Shown piece after piece: positions 16,575 through 25,294 of a stretch of DNA of 64,000 bases. This stretch comes from Laspinema sp. D2d (GTDB lineage: Bacteria > Cyanobacteriota > Cyanobacteriia > Cyanobacteriales > Laspinemataceae), in NCBI RefSeq assembly GCF_025370755.1, contig NZ_JAMXFC010000017.1, positions 64,376 through 128,375 of the forward strand. The letters are read 5' to 3'. Below the pieces are notes generated by a model. It was not told where the DNA came from. It saw nothing but the letters and a program-made list of their open reading frames with translations, and searched no databases. The translations under genes were made by a program, and so were the position numbers. Within the stretch, counting starts at the first letter, position 1; each line of letters starts with the position of its first letter.

Positions 16575-17684
16575 TTAGGGGAAAGTGACAACGGTGCGAA
16601 TGCCTTCCCCGCTGTGCATCAGGTCAAAAGCTTCGTTGATCCGATTGACGGGGATGATATGGGAAACCAGACTATCGATGTCGATTTTACCATCCATGTA
16701 CCAATCGACGATTTTAGGTACATCCCGGCGACCTTTAGCACCTCCAAAGGCAGTTCCTCGCCAAACCCGTCCGGTGACGAGTTGGAAGGGACGGGTCCTA
16801 ATTTCTTGGCCCGCCCCTGCGACACCAATGATTACAGATTCGCCCCAGCCTTTATGACAGCATTCGAGGGCCTGACGCATTACGTTGACGTTGCCGATAC
16901 ATTCAAAGCTATAGTCGGCACCGCCATCGGTAAGGTCGATGATGGCGGCAACAACATCATCTACATCGTTGGGGTTGATGAAATGAGTCATGCCAAATTT
17001 TTCAGCAAGGTCCCGTTTGGCGGGATTGAGGTCAATCCCAATAATTTGGTTGGCTCCCACTAAACGCGCGCCTTGGATCACGTTCAGTCCAATTCCCCCT
17101 AATCCAAAGACGACGACATTGGACCCCGGTTCGACTTTGGCGGTGTTGATGACGGCCCCAATGCCGGTTGTGACTCCACAGCCAATCAGACAGACTTTCT
17201 CGAAGGGGGCGTCATCGCGGATTTTGGCGACGGCGATTTCGGGAAGAACGGTGAAGTTAGCAAAGGTAGAGGTTCCCATGTAGTGATGGATTTTTTCACC
17301 ATTGAGGGAGAAGCGGCTGGTGCCATCCGGCATGACTCCTTTGCCTTGGGTGGCTCGGATGGCTTGACAGAGGTTGGTTTTATTGCTGAGACAGTATTTG
17401 CATTGACGACATTCCGGGGTATAGAGGGGAATGACGCGATCGCCTACTTTAAGACTTTTGACGTCATCGCCGACTTCCACCACAACTCCAGCCCCTTCAT
17501 GCCCCAGGATAGCCGGAAACAGTCCCTCTGGGTCGGCTCCAGATAAAGTATAGGCATCGGTATGACAAACGCCGGTCGCTTTGATTTCTACCATAACTTC
17601 TCCGGCTTTGGGACCGTTAAGTTGTACGGTTTCTAAACTTAAAGGTTTATCGGCTTGCCAAGCAACGGCGGCTTGTATGTCCAT
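16575..17684 (-). CDS. adhC: S-(hydroxymethyl)glutathione dehydrogenase (class III alcohol dehydrogenase)
   Basis: This NAD-dependent cytosolic enzyme oxidises S-(hydroxymethyl)glutathione, formed from formaldehyde and glutathione, to S-formylglutathione; class III enzymes also reduce S-nitrosoglutathione. The length of 369 residues is standard. Catalytic zinc ligands C40 (GVCHTDAY), H62 (GHEGAG) and Cys near 169 are present, as are the structural zinc cysteines C92, C95, C98 and C106 and the nucleotide-binding GLGGIG near 195. It leads the operon with fghA. A 7-bp inverted repeat (GTTGATT...AATCAAC, 17727-17749) lies ~43 bases upstream of its start and could be an operator. Confidence 0.96.
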
Positions 17685-17782
17685 AATTATCTCGTCTTTG
17701 TTTGTTTTGTGAGAAGAAACAGTCCTGTTGATTGTAGCGGAAAATCAACCCTAAACTCGGAATTTTTTTGGTAAAGTAGGGG

Positions 17783-17811
17783 TTGACAAATCTATCAAAA
17801 AGGGGTTAAAG
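17783..17811 (+). promoter_or_regulatory. Sigma70-type promoter of a small transcription unit
   Basis: A perfect -35 box TTGACA (17783-17788) is followed at exactly 17 bases by TTAAAG (17806-17811), a weak -10 box. Transcription would start near 17,818 and run right. The hairpin with a U-run at 17,909-17,940 would end it after about 115 bases. Confidence 0.45.
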
Positions 17812-17817
17812 CATTCC

Positions 17818-17936
17818 GATTTAGATTTGCCTATGGCAAAACCTTGGCCTTTGGTGGAGATTACCGCTGGGGAGAAAAAGGTCAAGTCTTCGGGTCTAAC
17901 TTGCAAGTAAAAACACGAACTATCATGGTGTTTTTT
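17818..17936 (+). ncRNA. Candidate small RNA or mRNA for a 25-residue peptide
   Basis: The segment is bounded by the promoter-like sites at 17783-17811 and by the hairpin at 17909-17935. Inside it, an ATG at 17833 opens 25 codons (MAKPWPLVEI..., ending GLTCK) before TAA 17908-17910. There is no good ribosome site, only 15 bases of leader. It may be a regulatory RNA, a leaderless-like short peptide or chance. The position between adhC and modA, divergent from adhC, is intergenic in both directions. Confidence 0.3.
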
Positions 17937-17940
17937 ATTA
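17909..17940 (+). terminator. AT-rich intrinsic terminator candidate
   Basis: AAAAACAC (17909-17916) pairs with GTGTTTTT (17928-17935) around an 11-base loop, followed by more T residues. A second similar hairpin (GCAAAAAC...GTTTTTGC) lies about 30 bases downstream (17,963-17,999). Stems are AT-rich, so strength is uncertain. Confidence 0.45.
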
Positions 17941-18033
17941 CTGGAAATCCAAAACATAAAATATGCAAAAACCCCGCACTCTGAAGGATGGTGTTTTTGC
18001 CGATCCCCCCAACCCGAGACCGCTGATGGTGCT

Positions 18034-18070
18034 AGTATTTTAGCAGGACGCCAGTATAATAGCAGGATGC
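18034..18070 (+). repeat. Tandem direct repeat over the modA promoter region
   Basis: AGTATTTTAGCAGGACGCC (18034-18052) is followed at once by AGTATAATAGCAGGATGC (18053-18070), sharing 15 of 18 bases. The second copy contains a perfect -10 box TATAAT (18055-18060), 26 bases before the modA GTG. A regulator binding the repeat would sit on the promoter. The pattern differs from the palindromic ModE site of E. coli. Confidence 0.5.
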
Positions 18071-18085
18071 AAAATCAGGTCAAAC

Positions 18086-18898
18086 GTGACAACTATGGGA
18101 CAACATCGGAGAAAACCGCTCAGGTATGTAGGTTTTGCCCTGCTTGCACTGCTGGTAGCTTGTGGGACATCTGAGGTAACCCAGCCGCCTGACTCACCCT
18201 CTGCCACTGTGACGCTCACGGTTTCCGCTGCTTCAGATTTGAACCCGGTGTTTCCTGAAATTGCTCAACTTTGGGAAGAGGAAACGGGACATCAAGTGGT
18301 ATTTAATCTCGGTTCAACAGGACAACTGGCTCAACAAATTGCCCAGGGTGCGCCGGTGGATTTATTTGCCGCTGCTAATCAAAAATTCGTGGAAGATTTA
18401 GATAAAAAAGGGGTGGTTATTTCGGAGACAAAGGCACTTTATGGGGTGGGAAGAATTACCCTTTGGCATCGAGAAGACAGTGCCTTGAATCTGCAACAAC
18501 TTCAGGATTTGACCCGGCCCGAAATTAAACGAGTTGCCATTGCAAATCCCGATCATGCTCCCTACGGAGTAGCCGCCAAAGAAGCTTTACAATCGGTGGG
18601 AATTTGGGATGAAATTCAGCCGAAGTTGGTACTGGGGGAAAATGTTAGACAAGCCCAACAGTATGCGGAATCGGGGAATGTGGATGTGGCGATCGCGGCT
18701 TTATCAATTAGCCTGAACCGTCCGGGTCAATGGGTCTTAATTCCCGAAGCGTTACATCAGCCTCTTGTGCAGATGTTAGTCATCCCGAAAGCGGCTCCTC
18801 ATCCAGAAATTGCCCAGGATTTTGCTCGATTTATTAATGGTCCGAAAGGTAGACCTTTGATGCAAGAGTATGGATTTAGGCTACCGGGTGAGGACTAA
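18086..18898 (+). CDS. modA: Molybdate ABC transporter substrate-binding lipoprotein
   Basis: The protein has 270 residues from a GTG; an ATG three codons later is an alternative start. The signal segment ends with lipobox LLVAC (Cys26), so it should be a lipid-anchored periplasmic protein that captures molybdate or tungstate. The ModA pattern is clear: LTVSAASDLNPVF, FNLGSTGQLAQQI, GAPVDLFAAAN, and later VAIANPDHAPYGVAAKEAL with the oxyanion-binding region. It is followed five bases later by the permease gene modB. The transport ATPase modC is not present nearby. Confidence 0.93.
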   Translation: MTTMGQHRRKPLRYVGFALLALLVACGTSEVTQPPDSPSATVTLTVSAASDLNPVFPEIAQLWEEETGHQVVFNLGSTGQLAQQIAQGAPVDLFAAANQKFVEDLDKKGVVISETKALYGVGRITLWHREDSALNLQQLQDLTRPEIKRVAIANPDHAPYGVAAKEALQSVGIWDEIQPKLVLGENVRQAQQYAESGNVDVAIAALSISLNRPGQWVLIPEALHQPLVQMLVIPKAAPHPEIAQDFARFINGPKGRPLMQEYGFRLPGED

Positions 18899-18903
18899 AT
18901 TAA

Positions 18904-19554
18904 ATGATTTGGCAGCCTTTAATTTTGTCGTTACAGGTGACAGGAATTGCCAGTTTGTTAATTTTGATTTTGGGTTTAGGATTGGGTATTCTGTTAGCCC
19001 GAACCCGGTTTCCGGGACAGCTGCTGGTTTCCACGGTGTTAAATTTACCCTTGGTCCTACCTCCGAGTGTGGTGGGTTATGGGTTATTGCTGGCATTAGG
19101 GCGAGGTAGTCCGATTCAGGAAGTTTTGGGAATTCAGTTATTATTTACTTGGCAAGCTGCGGCGATCGCCTCGACGGTGGTAGCACTTCCCTTAATGGTG
19201 GAATCCACAAGGGTGGCGATCGCGAGTGTCAATCCTGAACTGGAAGACGCCGCCCGCACTTTAGGCGCATCGGAACTAGAAGTCTTGTGGCTGATTAGTT
19301 TACCTTTAGCCTATCGCGGAGTTTTGGCTGGATTAGGGTTAAGTATTGCCCGAGGGTTAGGCGAATTTGGCGCAACGCTGATGGTGGCAGGCAGTATTCC
19401 CGGGCGCACCCAAACTTTACCCCTAGCGCTTTATGATGCTGTACAGATGCAGGATTATCAACGTGCCAATCAAATGGTGCTGATCATGACGGTTATCGCC
19501 TTTACTTTGTTATGGGGGGTGAGACTGTTGGAAAACTCGCAGGAACATCAATGA
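18904..19554 (+). CDS. modB: Molybdate ABC transporter permease
   Basis: The protein has 216 residues with about five membrane helices, starting with PLILSLQVTGIASLLILILGL. The EAA loop that docks the ATPase is visible near residues 118-145 (EDAARTLGASELEVLWL), followed by ARGLGEFGATLMVAGSIPG, typical of ModB. It starts at ATG 18904, five bases after modA, so it is in the same operon. In many cyanobacteria ModB is fused to the ATPase ModC; here the protein ends soon after the last helix, and the next gene is convergent. The ATPase must be supplied from elsewhere, or the system has lost it. Confidence 0.93.
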   Translation: MIWQPLILSLQVTGIASLLILILGLGLGILLARTRFPGQLLVSTVLNLPLVLPPSVVGYGLLLALGRGSPIQEVLGIQLLFTWQAAAIASTVVALPLMVESTRVAIASVNPELEDAARTLGASELEVLWLISLPLAYRGVLAGLGLSIARGLGEFGATLMVAGSIPGRTQTLPLALYDAVQMQDYQRANQMVLIMTVIAFTLLWGVRLLENSQEHQ

Positions 19555-19583
19555 AACAAGATACTCCATCCCGCTAATCCGAT

Positions 19584-19650
19584 ATTCAATCGGATTGAAT
19601 TAAGGGTTTTTACAAAAAAAAACCGGGAAACTTCAATCGGGTTCCGGTTT
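19584..19650. terminator. Two hairpins between convergent modB and phosphatase genes
   Basis: The first is ATTCAAT/ATTGAAT (19584-19600, 3-base loop), followed by a T-rich stretch. The second is AAACCGGGAA (19620-19629) with TTCCGGTTT (19642-19650), flanked by an A-run that reads as a U-run on the minus strand. Together they look like terminators for the two converging units. Confidence 0.5.
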
Positions 19651-19684
19651 ATAATAGGTTATCCTAATCGACATTCTGGACAGG

Positions 19685-20176
19685 TTAGAGACTCACTTTG
19701 ACATTTTGCTGCTCAACGACATAATCCAGAAGCCCTTCACAGGCATCGGTGAGCAGATCGATGACATTGTTGAATCCATCGGGACCGCCATAATAGGGGT
19801 CGGGAACTTCTTTCTCGGGGCGATCGCGACAGAAATCGCACATCATGCGGACTTTTTGCCGATATTGACCCTGGGGATCAAGGGAGATGATATCGGCGTA
19901 GTTTTCCCGATCCATCGCTAAAATGAGGTCAAATTTCTGAAAATCTGCGGGATGAAAGCGGCGCGCTTCGCCAATAAAAGTGAGTCCCTGTTGTTTAGCT
20001 GCGGCAACCATGCGGCGATCGGGTGGACTTCCCACATGATAAGCCGAAGTCCCAGCAGAGTCACAAATAATTTGACCCTCAAGATTTCTGCCTGCGATTT
20101 GATGGTTCATAATATTTTCAGCAGCAGGAGAGCGGCAGATATTCCCGAGACAGACGAATAAAAGTTTATAGGGCAT
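19685..20176 (-). CDS. Low-molecular-weight protein tyrosine phosphatase
   Basis: The protein has 163 residues, the usual length. The active-site P-loop CLGNICRS carries the nucleophile Cys9 and Arg15 (C-X5-R), and the general acid is in the DPYYGG segment near residue 126. The enzyme removes phosphate from tyrosine residues in the cytosol; in cyanobacteria homologs have been linked to photosystem and phycobilisome proteins. It starts at ATG 20176 and looks monocistronic. Confidence 0.94.
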   Translation of the reverse strand: MPYKLLFVCLGNICRSPAAENIMNHQIAGRNLEGQIICDSAGTSAYHVGSPPDRRMVAAAKQQGLTFIGEARRFHPADFQKFDLILAMDRENYADIISLDPQGQYRQKVRMMCDFCRDRPEKEVPDPYYGGPDGFNNVIDLLTDACEGLLDYVVEQQNVKVSL

Positions 20177-20299
20177 GGCTGAGTTATTCGGAGTTGGAGA
20201 CTGAGGATAATAAATAGAAGAGGCGATCGCCTTCTATCTTACCGAGATTTTAAACTGGATCACTCCAATTGAAACCGGAATCAAAGCAAAAAACAAAAT

Positions 20300-20334
20300 T
20301 AGCTGGCTTTCTTGACACAGTAGAAAGCCAGCTA
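20300..20334 (-). terminator. Intrinsic terminator of the ybaB-like gene
   Basis: TAGCTGGCTTTCT (20300-20312) pairs perfectly over 13 bp with AGAAAGCCAGCTA (20322-20334), loop 9 bases. Read on the minus strand it is followed by AATTTTGTTTTTTG. It lies 68 bases downstream of the ybaB-like stop. Confidence 0.75.
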
Positions 20335-20401
20335 GATCTTGATGAAAAGTAGTTGATATGGATTAGACTCGATACAAAGACGACTGCCTGAGCTATAGCA
20401 G

Positions 20402-20752
20402 TTACAGACCGGGCAAATTGAGCCCACCTGTTAATTCTTCCATCCGTTCGCGCATGGTTGCGGTGGATTTATTATATGCATCTGTCATCGCAACGGCAAC
20501 CAGTTCGGAAACCACTTCCGCTCCTTCACCGAGAGCATCGGGCGAAATTTCGACCCGACGGGGTTCTTGGTTGCCGCTTAAAACGACTTTAACCAGACCC
20601 CCACCGGCTTCTCCGATCACTTCGAGTTCATCTAATTCTTCTTGAAGCTTTTTAGCACCTTCTTGTACTTGTTGAGCTTTTTTGAAGGCTTCAGTCAGCT
20701 CTTTCATTTTGCCGAGACCGAAACCAAATCCTCCCTGTCCTTTTCCTGCCAT
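20402..20752 (-). CDS. YbaB/EbfC family nucleoid-associated protein
   Basis: The protein has 116 residues. The helical N part ([21 protein letters not shown]) and the strand-rich core ([21 protein letters not shown]) followed by the C-terminal helix ([19 protein letters not shown]) match YbaB/EbfC. These dimers bind DNA with little sequence preference and affect nucleoid organisation. A Gly-rich start ([12 protein letters not shown]) precedes the core, as in other cyanobacterial forms. It starts at ATG 20752 and ends with a strong terminator at 20300-20334. Confidence 0.93.
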
Positions 20753-21219
20753 AACGGGTTAACTCTGTATGGGTTCAAATCGATGTTGGCATGATTGAGC
20801 GGCGCGATCGCTGCTGTGGATTCTTGGTGCTTCAAGGGGACTGACCCTAAAATAGTCTCCTATTTTAGCCAACCAGTGCCGCTTTCTCCAAGCGTTTTGC
20901 CCTTGATATAAGAGCCAGTTCCGGTGTGCCTCACCGTACTGTGAAGTTCTGAAGCTCTGGCGCGTTAACCAAGGTTCTCTCCTTCAATCTTCAAGGGAAG
21001 GGAGAACTTAGAAGTCAATCGGGTTAACGGTTGTCTCCTACGGCTTGACCGACTCAAACTGAATGTCTGGAGTTGGCCGCGCTCAGAATCAGACCCTCGT
21101 GGGCATTACCCTTAGCAATACTACCACGCGATAATTCCAGTATGCCATTGACCCAGCCCGGGGGGTCACCGGGTTTGAGGAGGACCAGATGGGAGGCGAT
21201 CGCCTCTCAATCCGTGAGG
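20753..21219. other. 467-base gap between ybaB and murB
   Basis: Apart from the omega-RNA-like element at about 20,925-21,130, it contains an inverted repeat AAATAG...CTATTT near 20,850-20,875. It also has a CCCGG...CCGGG hairpin near 21,158-21,172 that could end murB transcription on the minus strand, and a GAGGCGATCGCCTC palindrome at about 21,194-21,207. The gap is long for this gene-dense region, as expected for an inserted element. Confidence 0.5.
20925..21130 (+). ncRNA. Solo structured RNA resembling an IscB omega-RNA (HEARO)
   Basis: The non-coding stretch folds into nested stems on one strand. CGGTG/CACCG (20932-20946) is followed by GTTAACC (20964-20970) pairing with GGTTAAC (21022-21028). 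Inside that lies GTTCTCTCCTTC (20974-20985) with GAAGGGAGAAC (20997-21007). Then come ACTC/GAGT (about 21,051-21,073) and GTCTG (21065-21069) with CAGAC (21090-21094), which can form a pseudoknot. Segments such as GGTGTGCC near the 5' side and ACGGCTTGACCGAC in the middle resemble what I remember of HEARO RNAs, the guide RNAs of IscB nucleases. No iscB ORF follows, only the murB 3' end. Assignment is from pattern memory. Confidence 0.5.
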
Positions 21220-22233
21220 TTACAGGGCTTGAAACTCGCCAATCGTGCGAACTTCTGGTTCTAACAGCACGGCCCAGTTCTGCTCAACTTGCGCTTGGAC
21301 ATACCGAATAAGCTGGAAAATATCGCTGGCTTTCGCGCCGCCACAATTCACAATAAAGTTAGCGTGACGTTCCGCCACCTGAGCGCTGCCGATTTGGTAC
21401 CCTTTGAGTCCAGTTTGCTCAATGAGCCATCCAGCCCCTGGGGAGCCGTCCGGATTGCGGAAGACACTGCCACAACTTGGCAGGTGATAGGGTTGGGTGG
21501 ATTTGCGATGTTCGAGTTGTTCGGAGGTGGTCGCTTGGACCCGTGCGGGGTCTGCACCGGGTTTGAGTTGAAATGTGGCCTCGGTAACTAGGCGATCGCC
21601 CCCTTGCAGGACCGAGGTGCGATAGCTATACCCCAACTCTTCCAGAGTGAGGACAGAAATCGTTCCCCGGCGCGACACCACTTGAGTATTCACTAAAATT
21701 TCCGAGGTACAACTCCCGTGAGCACCGGCATTCATCACGACGGCTCCCCCAATCGTACCGGGAATCCCTACCGCCCACTCTAGTCCTTCCCATCCCAATT
21801 GAGCGGCTTGCCAAGCTAGACGCGGCAGGGACTGACCTGCGGCAACGGTTACTTGACCTGTTTCGGGATTAAAACGGCTATAGCGCAGATGGCGGGTAGA
21901 AATCGCCAAACCGGGAATGCCGCGATCGCTAACTAAGAGATTAGAACCCGCACCCAAGAAGGTCACGGGTAATCCTTGAGCCCTGGCCCATTCTAAACAG
22001 GCTTGGACTTCTTCTATCTGGTTAGGCGCAACATACCATTCAGCAGGACCCCCTACTCGAAAGGAGGTAAACATGGATAAGGAAACATTAGACTTAATCT
22101 GACAAGCGGTTCCGGCTAAATAAATAGATTCGGATCGATCGCGATCCCCATTCAATCGAGTCAGGTGTGAATTGGCGGGTTGGTTGACCACGGAGGGGCT
22201 GAGGGTGCGTACAGTATCGGAGGAAAGAGTCAT
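21220..22233 (-). CDS. murB: UDP-N-acetylenolpyruvoylglucosamine reductase
   Basis: This FAD enzyme reduces UDP-GlcNAc-enolpyruvate to UDP-MurNAc with NADPH in the cytosolic pathway to peptidoglycan. About 337 residues follow from ATG 22233, which has GGAGGAAAG-like purines around it; a GTG 11 codons upstream is possible. FAD-binding [17 protein letters not shown] near residue 95, [18 protein letters not shown] near 150 and [20 protein letters not shown] near 250, with the catalytic Ser region, are present. This fits the murB type with a ~45-residue N-terminal extension. It lies downstream of murC on the same strand, a common cyanobacterial pair. Confidence 0.96.
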
Positions 22234-22339
22234 GATAATCCAGGTGCTTAAATCCCTATAGACCACTGTTTGTGAAAGTAAATCATCCAGGGTATTTCGA
22301 GGAGCGATCGCCCGGGGTTCCCTAGAAACTTACTGGCGC

Positions 22340-23896
22340 TCAGGCTCGATGGCGTGCTTCTGCCAGAGCCGTTTGCTCGACCTGTTGATGAAATGCCATC
22401 ACTTCCGGAATGATCTGATTCAAATTACCAGCCCCCAGAAATATGGCGAGGTCTCCCGGAAGCAAGGCTTCACTGAGAAACTTACTCACGTCAGACAGAG
22501 AAGGACTGTAATGCACCCGAGGATGATGAGCCGAGATCTCGTTAGCAACTTGTTGTCCGCTCAGTTGAAATTCATTGGCTTCCCCGGCACTGTAAATGTC
22601 GGTCACTAGGACCACATCAGCATCACTAAAGGATTCAGCAAACTCGGCTAAAAAGGCCCGAGTTCGACTGTACCGATGGGGTTGAAATATAGCAACAACA
22701 CGACTAGCGCGAGAACGCAAGCCTTGAGTTTGCAGACTGGCCGCATGGAGGGTAGCCCGAATTTCACTGGGGTGATGAGCGTAGTCATCGACAAATTGGA
22801 TATTATTGTAGTTACCTCGGGTCTCAAACCGGCGGCAAGCGCCCTCAAATGTAGCAATTTCCCGGGCAATCGTCGCAAAGTCTAAACCGACCAAGCGTCC
22901 AACAGCAACCACGGCTAGAGCGTTACTCAGGTTATGGGCACCAAGTAGGGAAATGGACAGTTGACCGAGAATTTGACCTCGCTCCCAAACCCTCGCTGTG
23001 GTCCCGTCGGCTCTATAAGCGATACAGTCTACGGTGTAATCGGCCCCGGAATCCAGGTTGAGGCTGTAGGAGATGCCCGGTTGAATGCGATCGCGCACGG
23101 TTGGGCAATCAATGCATCCCACTAAATCGGTGCAGCGCTCTTTAAAGGTTTCAAAAATCTCAATGACTTGATCCAAGCTCTGGTAGTGGTCCGGATGGTC
23201 TAGTTCGATGTTGGTTACCACGCCAATTTTTGCCGAGAGTTTGGCGAGGGACCCATCGGATTCATCCGCTTCTGCCACTAGATAGGGGCCTTCTCCCAGC
23301 CGAGCGTTCCCTTCCCAGGCTTTGACTTCTCCCCCCACCACAATCGTGGGGTCCAACCCGGCTTTTAACAGCACATAAGCCAGCATTGAACTTGTTGTGG
23401 TCTTCCCGTGGGTTCCGGCTACGGCAATGCTTTGATATTCAGAGATTAAAGCAGCTAGTAAGTCGGAGCGGTGAAAGATGGGACAGCCGAGGTCTAAGGC
23501 GGCTTGATATTCGCTATTGGCTCCATCGATCGCCGTTGAGCAAATCACTTGCGGCAAATCAACAGGGGACGGGATGCCGTTGGCGGCTAATCTTACCGGT
23601 TTCGGTGCGATCGCAGGTAAACCGCCAGACCCCTCCCCCTTGGCTGAACTCAAAACTGCCGCTTCATCGGTGGACGCGCTCTGTTGTCGGTAAAAATCCA
23701 GGTTGCTGGCATCTTGACGCCAAAAAATTTGCGCTCCATTTTCTTGTAAGCGCTGAGTGATATGGCTCGACCGAATATCGGAGCCAAATACCGGGACCTG
23801 CCGCTTTGCTAAAATGTAGGCAAGCGCTGACATTCCGATTCCACCGATTCCGATGAAATGAAAGGGTTTGCCACTTAGATCGATAGAATTGTGCAT
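22340..23896 (-). CDS. murC: UDP-N-acetylmuramate--L-alanine ligase
   Basis: This enzyme adds L-Ala to UDP-MurNAc with ATP, the first peptide step of peptidoglycan synthesis. The start at ATG 23896 is set by an AAGGAG eight bases upstream; longer frames lack this. The product has 518 residues, longer than the usual ~460-490. The Rossmann-like FIGIGGIGMSALA is at 14-26, the ATP P-loop GTHGKTTTS at 161-169, and the ligase family HPSEIRATL and FQPHRYSRTRAF blocks follow. The extra length comes from a Ser/Gly/Pro-rich insertion at about 72-115, before the VICSTAID segment. Confidence 0.96.
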   Translation of the reverse strand: MHNSIDLSGKPFHFIGIGGIGMSALAYILAKRQVPVFGSDIRSSHITQRLQENGAQIFWRQDASNLDFYRQQSASTDEAAVLSSAKGEGSGGLPAIAPKPVRLAANGIPSPVDLPQVICSTAIDGANSEYQAALDLGCPIFHRSDLLAALISEYQSIAVAGTHGKTTTSSMLAYVLLKAGLDPTIVVGGEVKAWEGNARLGEGPYLVAEADESDGSLAKLSAKIGVVTNIELDHPDHYQSLDQVIEIFETFKERCTDLVGCIDCPTVRDRIQPGISYSLNLDSGADYTVDCIAYRADGTTARVWERGQILGQLSISLLGAHNLSNALAVVAVGRLVGLDFATIAREIATFEGACRRFETRGNYNNIQFVDDYAHHPSEIRATLHAASLQTQGLRSRASRVVAIFQPHRYSRTRAFLAEFAESFSDADVVLVTDIYSAGEANEFQLSGQQVANEISAHHPRVHYSPSLSDVSKFLSEALLPGDLAIFLGAGNLNQIIPEVMAFHQQVEQTALAEARHRA

Positions 23897-24397
23897 TATA
23901 AGCTCCTTACACACCACACCACGCCAATAACACGCGATATCATATCAAGAATTGTTTTTGTACGATACAGTCATAACAGAAATTAAGCGATCTCCCTGAA
24001 GAAGCATTTTTCGATTCTAGTGTCGAATACACCCCTTCTGTAGTCTTTTCCCGAGATTTTTCTAGGGTTAAACGTTTTGGGTGTGTTTACCATAACCGAT
24101 GGTCAAGAAAAAGGGAAAATCACTCATGACCTTAAAAATGAGCTAGAAATCTCACTTAAGTTAGGTAAAAGTACGTTCCTGAAAGGTAGCAGAACCAAGG
24201 GGAAAGCACTCTTTCCATCGCACAAGTGCCTCCATCGGTTGGTAGGGTATTTCCGGAAAAAATACCACTAAAAAGCCGTTAGAGGAAATCATAGCGGGTT
24301 ATTATTGCCCGGATGGGTGACCTTCGGCCCCTCCAATCCAACTAAAAATGACCGCTATCTTTGAATAGCCACTGTCAAACAAAGTGTACGGGAAAGA
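23897..24397. other. 501-base divergent gap between murC and nadD
   Basis: It holds the control regions of both genes. A 64-codon frame at 24077-24271 (plus) is Lys-rich and unlike any family I know, so I do not call it. A short inverted repeat GGTATTT (24246-24252) / AAATACC (24260-24266) is present. The left half is AT-rich with TTTTTCTAGG-type stretches; no clear -35/-10 pair can be fixed. Confidence 0.4.
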
Positions 24398-25216
24398 ATG
24401 CAGCCTCAGCGGATCAAAAAAAGAGCGATTTTGGGCGGAACCTTTGACCCGATTCATTGGGGGCATTTGGAAATCGCTTACGCCGCCTTAGATCAGGTGG
24501 GATTAAATCAGATTATATGGGTCATCGATCGCCACAAGCGCGATCCCCGTCAGCAATCGCGGGTAGAGTTTGAGCATCGCCAAGAAATGGTCCGCTTGGC
24601 GATCGCCCCAGAACCGGCCTTTTGCCTCGGTCCACCCTCCCCAGAGGACCCGGAATCCGGGTATGCGATCGTCACCGGACAAACCCTCCAACAGCGCTAT
24701 CCAGATAGCCAGTGGTATTGGATTATCGGGGCCGACGCCTTTTCTACCCTGCCGAAATGGTATCGCGCTGCTGAACTGGTTGAGGCTTTTGAGTGGTTAG
24801 TTGCACCGCGATCGCCATCCCCACCCCAGGTCAATTACTCAGAAGAAACTCCCTTATTAAGGGAAATCTCCCCCCTAAACCTTCAGGAAGGACGGCCTAA
24901 ATTAAACCCCACTCTAAGTACAAATCCCTCAAACCCTCTGGACAACACCACACGGATCAAAACTGAGGAGATTTGCCAACAAGTCGCGATCGCCTTTAAG
25001 ACCAGACAGATTACTCTCCGCTGGCAAATTTTACAATCCCAAACCCTGCCAATAGCTTCAACCTTACTCCGTCACCATTGGTGCGACTCTCCCACAATCC
25101 GCACCTGGGTTCCCGAACCCGTCCAAATTTATATCCAAACTCACCCCCTTTATCAGAACCCACAGTACCCGCTACCACCGCACTCTAGGTCGATCCCCAG
25201 ACTTAAAAAAATCTGA
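24398..25216 (+). CDS. nadD: Nicotinate-nucleotide adenylyltransferase, with long C-terminal insert
   Basis: This enzyme makes deamido-NAD from nicotinate mononucleotide and ATP in NAD synthesis. The nucleotidyltransferase signature GGTFDPIHWGHLEIA (residues 13-27) has the HxGH motif at 20-23. WIIGADAFSTLPKWYRAAEL near 107 binds the nicotinate part, and IASTLLR (219-225) stands for the usual ISSTxIR. The length of 272 residues exceeds the usual ~190-210 because of a low-complexity Asn/Pro/Glu-rich insert (~145-200) between these parts and a basic tail. It starts at ATG 24398 after GGAAAG and lies 78 bases ahead of gap2. Confidence 0.88.
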   Translation: MQPQRIKKRAILGGTFDPIHWGHLEIAYAALDQVGLNQIIWVIDRHKRDPRQQSRVEFEHRQEMVRLAIAPEPAFCLGPPSPEDPESGYAIVTGQTLQQRYPDSQWYWIIGADAFSTLPKWYRAAELVEAFEWLVAPRSPSPPQVNYSEETPLLREISPLNLQEGRPKLNPTLSTNPSNPLDNTTRIKTEEICQQVAIAFKTRQITLRWQILQSQTLPIASTLLRHHWCDSPTIRTWVPEPVQIYIQTHPLYQNPQYPLPPHSRSIPRLKKI

Positions 25217-25294
25217 TCGAAATTTACACCTGTTGCGATATGATTGGGTTCATTACGTTAGGCAGTTTTACATTAAAGAAAGGGGCAAGACGCA

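What the first reader, a model, noticed from the sequence alone, without database searches (positions are those of the whole stretch)
20925..21130. Solo structured RNA resembling an IscB omega-RNA, with no nuclease gene beside it
Seen: nested perfect or near-perfect stems (GTTAACC/GGTTAAC enclosing a 12-bp hairpin; a 5' CGGTG/CACCG stem; two overlapping 3' stems that can form a pseudoknot) in a gap with no ORF. Known: HEARO RNAs are such elements in cyanobacteria and serve as guide RNAs (omega-RNA) for IscB, normally just upstream of the iscB ORF. Inference: this is a stand-alone copy that could act in trans with an IscB encoded elsewhere, or a relic of a transposed element. In IscB systems the guide is at the 5' side, so on the plus strand it would lie just left of ~20,925.
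Basis: partly seen in the sequence, partly recalled or inferred. Interest (0 to 1): 0.75.

Follow-up and report, generated by a model that had tools for sequence, protein, structure and literature searches.

The report
Orphan TnpB-type guide RNA in cyanobacterium
Between two housekeeping genes of a cyanobacterium lies a sequence that matches the guide-RNA scaffold of transposon TnpB nucleases, not that of IscB, on the strand opposite to the one first read; no TnpB was found in this genome, so it is likely a stranded guide RNA inherited from an old transposon.

Summary
Most of the named stems exist, but the reading changes. The candidate RNA runs on the minus strand of the murB-ybaB gap. It is not an IscB/HEARO RNA: no Rfam hit, no match in the own genome, and HEAROs of the genus look different. 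A model of the gap from eight genomes of the genus led to 18 places in other cyanobacteria; 10 of 18 lie at the 3' end of tnpB, 8 have none beside them. A model built from nine of the 18, without this genus, finds one place in the window: 20942-20759 minus, 49.3 bits, E 6e-11. Helices and a 3'-end pseudoknot covary in that family. So it is a stand-alone TnpB-type omega-RNA. One TnpB query gave no match in the own genome, 7-34 matches in each of seven relatives. Function is open: the scaffold core is not more conserved than many other gaps.

The parts
20786..20942 (-). TnpB-type omega-RNA scaffold (stand-alone)
   Evidence: R3, a covariance model without sequences of this genus, matches 20942-20759, 49.3 bits, E 6e-11, the only match in 64 kb. 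The 3' end at 20786 is my reading by eye; R3 itself put it at 20759.
20916..20941 (-). P3, counterpart of stem 1; its loop GGCA (20930-20927) can pair with the 3' end
   Evidence: Identical in the eight genomes; covaries over 14 sequences: 19 double-change cells, 0 of 500 shuffles.
20899..20915 (-). P4 hairpin, followed by AAAACGCTTGGAG (20898-20886)
   Evidence: Kept in the eight genomes; the corresponding helix of the family covaries.
20798..20815 (-). Candidate terminal stem (6 pairs, one mismatch) after AAGAATCC (20825-20818)
   Evidence: Folds the same in the eight genomes, which do not vary there; not aligned to the family's terminal stem by R3.
20786..20792 (-). ATGCCAA (ATGTCAA in two genomes): candidate 3' end whose TGCC/TGTC can pair with the P3 loop
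   Evidence: Sequence; the same pairing holds in 36 of 36 cells of the family.
20766..20785 (-). Where a TnpB guide would lie; identical in the eight genomes
   Evidence: No exact match in viral contigs, no second place in the window with up to 3 mismatches.
21098..21128 (-). P1 hairpin of the 5' extension
20944..21096 (-). P2 hairpin of the 5' extension, interrupted at its tip by the 112-bp segment
20971..21082 (-). 112-bp segment with three predicted hairpins, in 3 of 8 genomes
   Evidence: no other copy found.
21220..22266 (-). murB, upstream neighbour
   Evidence: Pfam MurB_C and FAD_binding_4.
20402..20752 (-). ybaB, downstream neighbour
   Evidence: Pfam YbaB_DNA_bd.

Best explanation
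The minus strand of the murB-ybaB gap holds a stand-alone sequence that matches the guide-RNA scaffold of TnpB nucleases, and it is likely the stranded remnant of an IS200/IS605-type element that entered before the eight sampled genomes of the genus split. Shown: the family match, covarying helices and pseudoknot in the family, the same place in eight genomes, no TnpB match in this genome. Inferred: it is transcribed together with murB and ybaB, folds as drawn, no longer directs a nuclease here for want of a partner, and persists mainly as structured leader sequence in front of ybaB. In relatives that keep TnpB, two of them with the same kind of RNA, it could still be bound in trans. The 112-bp segment is a tolerated expansion at the tip of the 5' extension, outside the scaffold.
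For: R2 of the eight-genome gap finds 18 places outside the genus, 10 with a tnpB reading frame at the match, four of them broken; Pfam OrfB_IS605 and Cas12f1-like_TNB in the two proteins scanned. R3, free of this genus, finds the window at 49.3 bits, the seven orthologues at 43.0-57.4, and 2 of 30 TnpB loci of the genus (L203 56.8, L204 28.7). Covariation: 33 double-change cells, 0 of 500 shuffles. Outgroup ybaB loci lack it (24 loci, best 12.5 bits), as expected of an insertion in this genus. Own genome: 0 TnpB and 0 HEARO matches.
Against: The nine sequences of R3 were found through R2, so P3-P4 is not independent. R3 does not align the terminal stem in the window, and no element ends were found. 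P1 and P2 were not shown to be homologous to anything outside the genus. Within the genus no pair changes on both sides. No transcript data. That the leader role is why it persists is a guess: the core is no more conserved than about one window in six of other gaps.
Confidence: 0.7

Rival explanations
1. Neutral fossil: a TnpB-type omega-RNA that is decaying and does nothing.
For: The 112-bp segment diverges 0.168-0.188, fourfold sites 0.184-0.257 in the same pairs. P3-P5 and P1/P2 are matched by 32 and 31 of 177 windows of ten other gaps.
Against: The gap outside the segment diverges 0.056 and 0.101 (its two parts) against 0.197 at fourfold sites, and P3 does not vary in eight genomes.
Confidence: 0.35
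2. Active guide RNA that works in trans with a TnpB or a nuclease-dead relative.
For: P3, P4, a candidate terminal stem, the pseudoknot bases and a 20-nt 3' stretch are kept in eight genomes; two relatives have a TnpB with an RNA of the same family.
Against: No TnpB match in this genome; the terminal stem differs from the family's; no target of the 20-nt stretch found in viral contigs or the window; the whole genome was not searched for a target.
Confidence: 0.15
3. Cis-regulatory leader of ybaB unrelated to TnpB.
For: The 66 bp next to ybaB are among the most conserved gap windows (2 of 177 as low); same strand as ybaB.
Against: R3 match over 20942-20759 and TnpB-linked relatives.
Confidence: 0.1
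4. Stand-alone IscB/HEARO omega-RNA.
For: HEAROs occur in 7 of 8 genus genomes.
Against: No HEARO match at E up to 10 in 20700-21300, none at E up to 1 in the own genome; genus HEAROs differ in sequence.
Confidence: 0.01

Closest known systems
TnpB omega-RNA (reRNA) of IS200/IS605, ISDra2 (PMC10097598, passages read)
   Same: Scaffold of hairpins; pseudoknot of the 3'-terminal bases with a 5' stem; UUUA loop in the last stem of the family (CTTTAG in most rows of A9); guide at the 3' end; a 5' region outside the ordered scaffold.
   Different: No tnpB beside it; a different terminal stem in this genus; a long 5' extension with the 112-bp segment.
tnpB-less copies of the same family in other cyanobacteria (L185, L186, L187, L190, L191, L192, L196, L200)
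   Same: Same scaffold, no tnpB beside it.
   Different: L192 and L196 are 96.8% identical over 442 bp with different flanks, so recently mobile; the window copy sits at one place in eight genomes.
RAGATH-18-derived reRNA of IS607 TnpB (PMC11061315, passages read)
   Same: TnpB guide RNA; 64% (10,258 of 16,029) lie next to TnpB, so others do not.
   Different: Another RNA family; no Rfam match here.
TldR guide RNAs (PMC13418256, passages read)
   Same: TnpB-type guide RNAs taken over for gene regulation.
   Different: They lie beside a tldR gene; none here.
HEARO / IscB omega-RNA (RF02033)
   Same: IS200/IS605-type guide RNA, also stand-alone in places (recalled).
   Different: No match; different sequence.

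Membership tests
HEARO (IscB omega-RNA) | Match to RF02033 | tested here: not met
HEARO (IscB omega-RNA) | Lies next to iscB | tested here: not met
   ORFs of 17000-25000 hold no such gene; iscB itself was not searched in the genome.
TnpB omega-RNA | Scaffold match to tnpB-linked RNAs | tested here: met
   R3, 49.3 bits, E 6e-11.
TnpB omega-RNA | Overlaps or follows the 3' end of tnpB | tested here: not met
   True for 10 of 18 relatives, not for the window.
TnpB omega-RNA | Pseudoknot of the 3' end with the stem-1 loop | tested here: inconclusive
   36 of 36 cells in the family; in this genus a matching TGCC/TGTC is present, placed by eye.
TnpB omega-RNA | Terminal stem before the guide | tested here: inconclusive
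   Not aligned by R3; another 6-pair hairpin stands there.
TnpB omega-RNA | TnpB available in the genome | tested here: not met
   0 matches with one query.
TnpB omega-RNA | RNA made, bound by TnpB, guides cleavage | not testable with these tools
   Needs RNA and binding data.

The most novel reading that the evidence does not exclude
A TnpB-type guide RNA that has cut loose from its nuclease and its transposon: one fixed copy passed down through a genus, with scaffold, pseudoknot and an unvarying 20-nt guide kept, now a domesticated guide or leader regulator of ybaB, even in a species without TnpB.
Probability: 0.15. Interest if true: 0.85.

Novelty: new variant of a known kind. Interest (0 to 1): 0.55.

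Why it matters
If right, a TnpB-type guide RNA has outlived its nuclease at a fixed place. It also belongs to a cyanobacterial RNA family that gave no match to Rfam 15 in the loci scanned and has tnpB-linked and tnpB-less members, one pair of the latter recently mobile. That makes the step from selfish guide RNA to host RNA, assumed for the origin of tracrRNAs and TldR guides, open to test.

Tried and rejected
HEARO: rejected. Dispersed MITE for the 112 bp: no other copy in the own genome at E up to 10 beyond pieces of at most 20 bases, in 14 family genomes beyond one 37-base piece at E 0.05, or in 194 order genomes with stricter filters. An integron attC site was weighed by eye and dropped. 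Gain or loss of the 112 bp: unresolved, the nodes that decide have support 32-58. No result: the gap in plasmids and phages (only short pieces, best E 0.05); the 20-nt stretch in viral contigs; R3 in 24 of the ybaB loci fetched (24 chosen out of about 110 outside the genus); the element's left end in the gap, by eye. One search computed the segment on 46 of its 112 columns; one search replaces it., meant to read TnpB tails of the genus, failed for most loci. One search scored only 5 candidates per genome, so 9 of 386 is a lower bound. Papers: listings; passages of PMC11061315, PMC10097598, PMC8987985, PMC13418256. None of these listings names this cyanobacterial RNA; most subscription papers are not held.

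Full report
Setting. The window lies in a 6.6-Mb genome, G000. The finding lies in the 467-bp gap between murB and ybaB, both on the minus strand. murB stands before ybaB on the same strand in 102 of 117 loci examined, with gaps of 71-607 bp between the aligned ends; 8 have it on the other strand, 7 not in the stretch held; some genomes occur twice.

The observation. The plus strand does not fold better than shuffles (z -1.51, 15 of 200), the minus strand does (z -3.08, 0 of 200). All 8 genomes of the genus have the gap in the same place. Five lack 112 bp, window 20971-21082; three have them: this one, G002 and G004 (107 bp in G004). The three hairpins of the segment fold in all three, but changes in pairs are few and one-sided. 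The segment diverges 0.168-0.188, fourfold sites 0.184-0.257, the rest of the gap 0.069-0.100, in the same pairs of genomes. GTTAACC/GGTTAAC is complementary in this genome only. Whether the segment was gained or lost is open.

The RNA around it. With the segment left out, the eight-genome alignment was folded in 11 windows on both strands. The best, alignment columns 121-352, has z -4.42 on the minus strand (0 of 60 column shuffles) and -2.90 on the plus strand (0 of 60). The structure is a row of hairpins, P1 to P4. 98.6% of cells pair, but no pair changes on both sides, so the genus alone gives no covariation evidence. The 112 bp sit at the tip of P2.

What it is. Model R2 of this core has matches in 9 of 14 family genomes, eight of them the genus itself, and in 9 of 386 phylum genomes including the own one. 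That makes 18 places outside the genus, at 23.6-38.9 bits. They share P3 (GTACGGTnnGGCAnACCGGAAC with few variants), a P4 helix and AACGCTTGG. In 10 of 18 a tnpB frame, intact or broken, runs into the match; in 8 of 18 tblastn finds none in the stretch held, up to 1.5 kb each side, one at a contig end. Two of the proteins were scanned: OrfB_IS605 and Cas12f1-like_TNB. L192 and L196 are tnpB-less, 96.8% identical over 442 bp with different flanks.

A model without this genus. R3 comes from 9 of the 18; dropped were five close copies, one cut by a contig end and three with long inserts. Its helices covary: 33 double-change cells against 10.5 in shuffles, 0 of 500. With the pseudoknot it is 34, and 36 of 36 pseudoknot cells pair. 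R3 finds one place in the window: 20942-20759 minus, 49.3 bits, E 6e-11 (E-values of the tool are rough). It finds the seven orthologues at 43.0-57.4 bits and 2 of 30 TnpB loci of the genus, L203 56.8 and L204 28.7, and nothing in 24 outgroup ybaB loci (best 12.5 bits, E 0.26). Caveat: the nine were found through R2, so P3-P4 is not an independent test; the part beyond AACGCTTGG was not in R2 and still aligns in stretches (AGU C, CAAGAAU). Over 14 sequences, two from the genus, P3 has 19 double-change cells, 0 of 500.

The 3' end. R3 does not align the terminal stem in the window. By eye, a different hairpin of 6 pairs follows AAGAATCC, then ATGCCAA (ATGTCAA in two genomes), whose TGCC/TGTC can pair with the P3 loop GGCA; the next 20 bases do not vary. 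ISDra2 has the same layout: pseudoknot of the last bases, UUUA loop, a 5' region not seen in the structure (PMC10097598, passages). On that reading the 112-bp segment and P1/P2 lie outside the scaffold.

HEARO. No match in the window. In the genus 7 of 8 genomes have matches over the cut-off, the own genome none at E up to 1; one of 14 control genomes gave a match below cut-off. Twelve genus HEAROs look different.

Partner. One TnpB query gave 0 matches in the own genome and 7, 10, 14, 14, 18, 20 and 34 in the others, fragments included, down to 23% identity. A more distant partner is not excluded.

Selection. P3-P5 diverges 0.041, P1 with the 5' arm of P2 0.036, fourfold sites 0.197. But 32 and 31 of 177 windows of ten other gaps are as conserved; only the 66 bp next to ybaB, 0.006, stand out, 2 of 177, and these may be promoter or leader. 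So selection on the RNA itself is not shown.

Verdict. A stand-alone TnpB-type omega-RNA, most likely stranded in this genome. Active guiding is possible in relatives, unproven, and here without a known partner.

Noticed in passing
L192 1308-1749 and L196 1308-1737 (genome G322): Two tnpB-less copies, 96.8% identical over 442 bp with different flanks, carrying the omega-RNA scaffold: a recently mobile non-autonomous element.
   Followed up: partly
L185 948-1216 and 1501-1613: A HEARO (99.8 bits) and a tnpB-less TnpB-type omega-RNA lie side by side, between frames that look like rnpA and yidC (by eye).
   Followed up: no
own genome G000: No HEARO and no TnpB match, while the seven genus mates have both: this genome seems free of this class of elements.
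   Followed up: partly
window 20847-20868: AT-rich hairpin CTAAAATAG/CTATTTTAG whose loop reads as its reverse complement in G002 (GGAGAC against GTCTCC).
   Followed up: no
window 25217-25294: Short gap with the lowest divergence of the ten other gaps compared (0.016).
   Followed up: no
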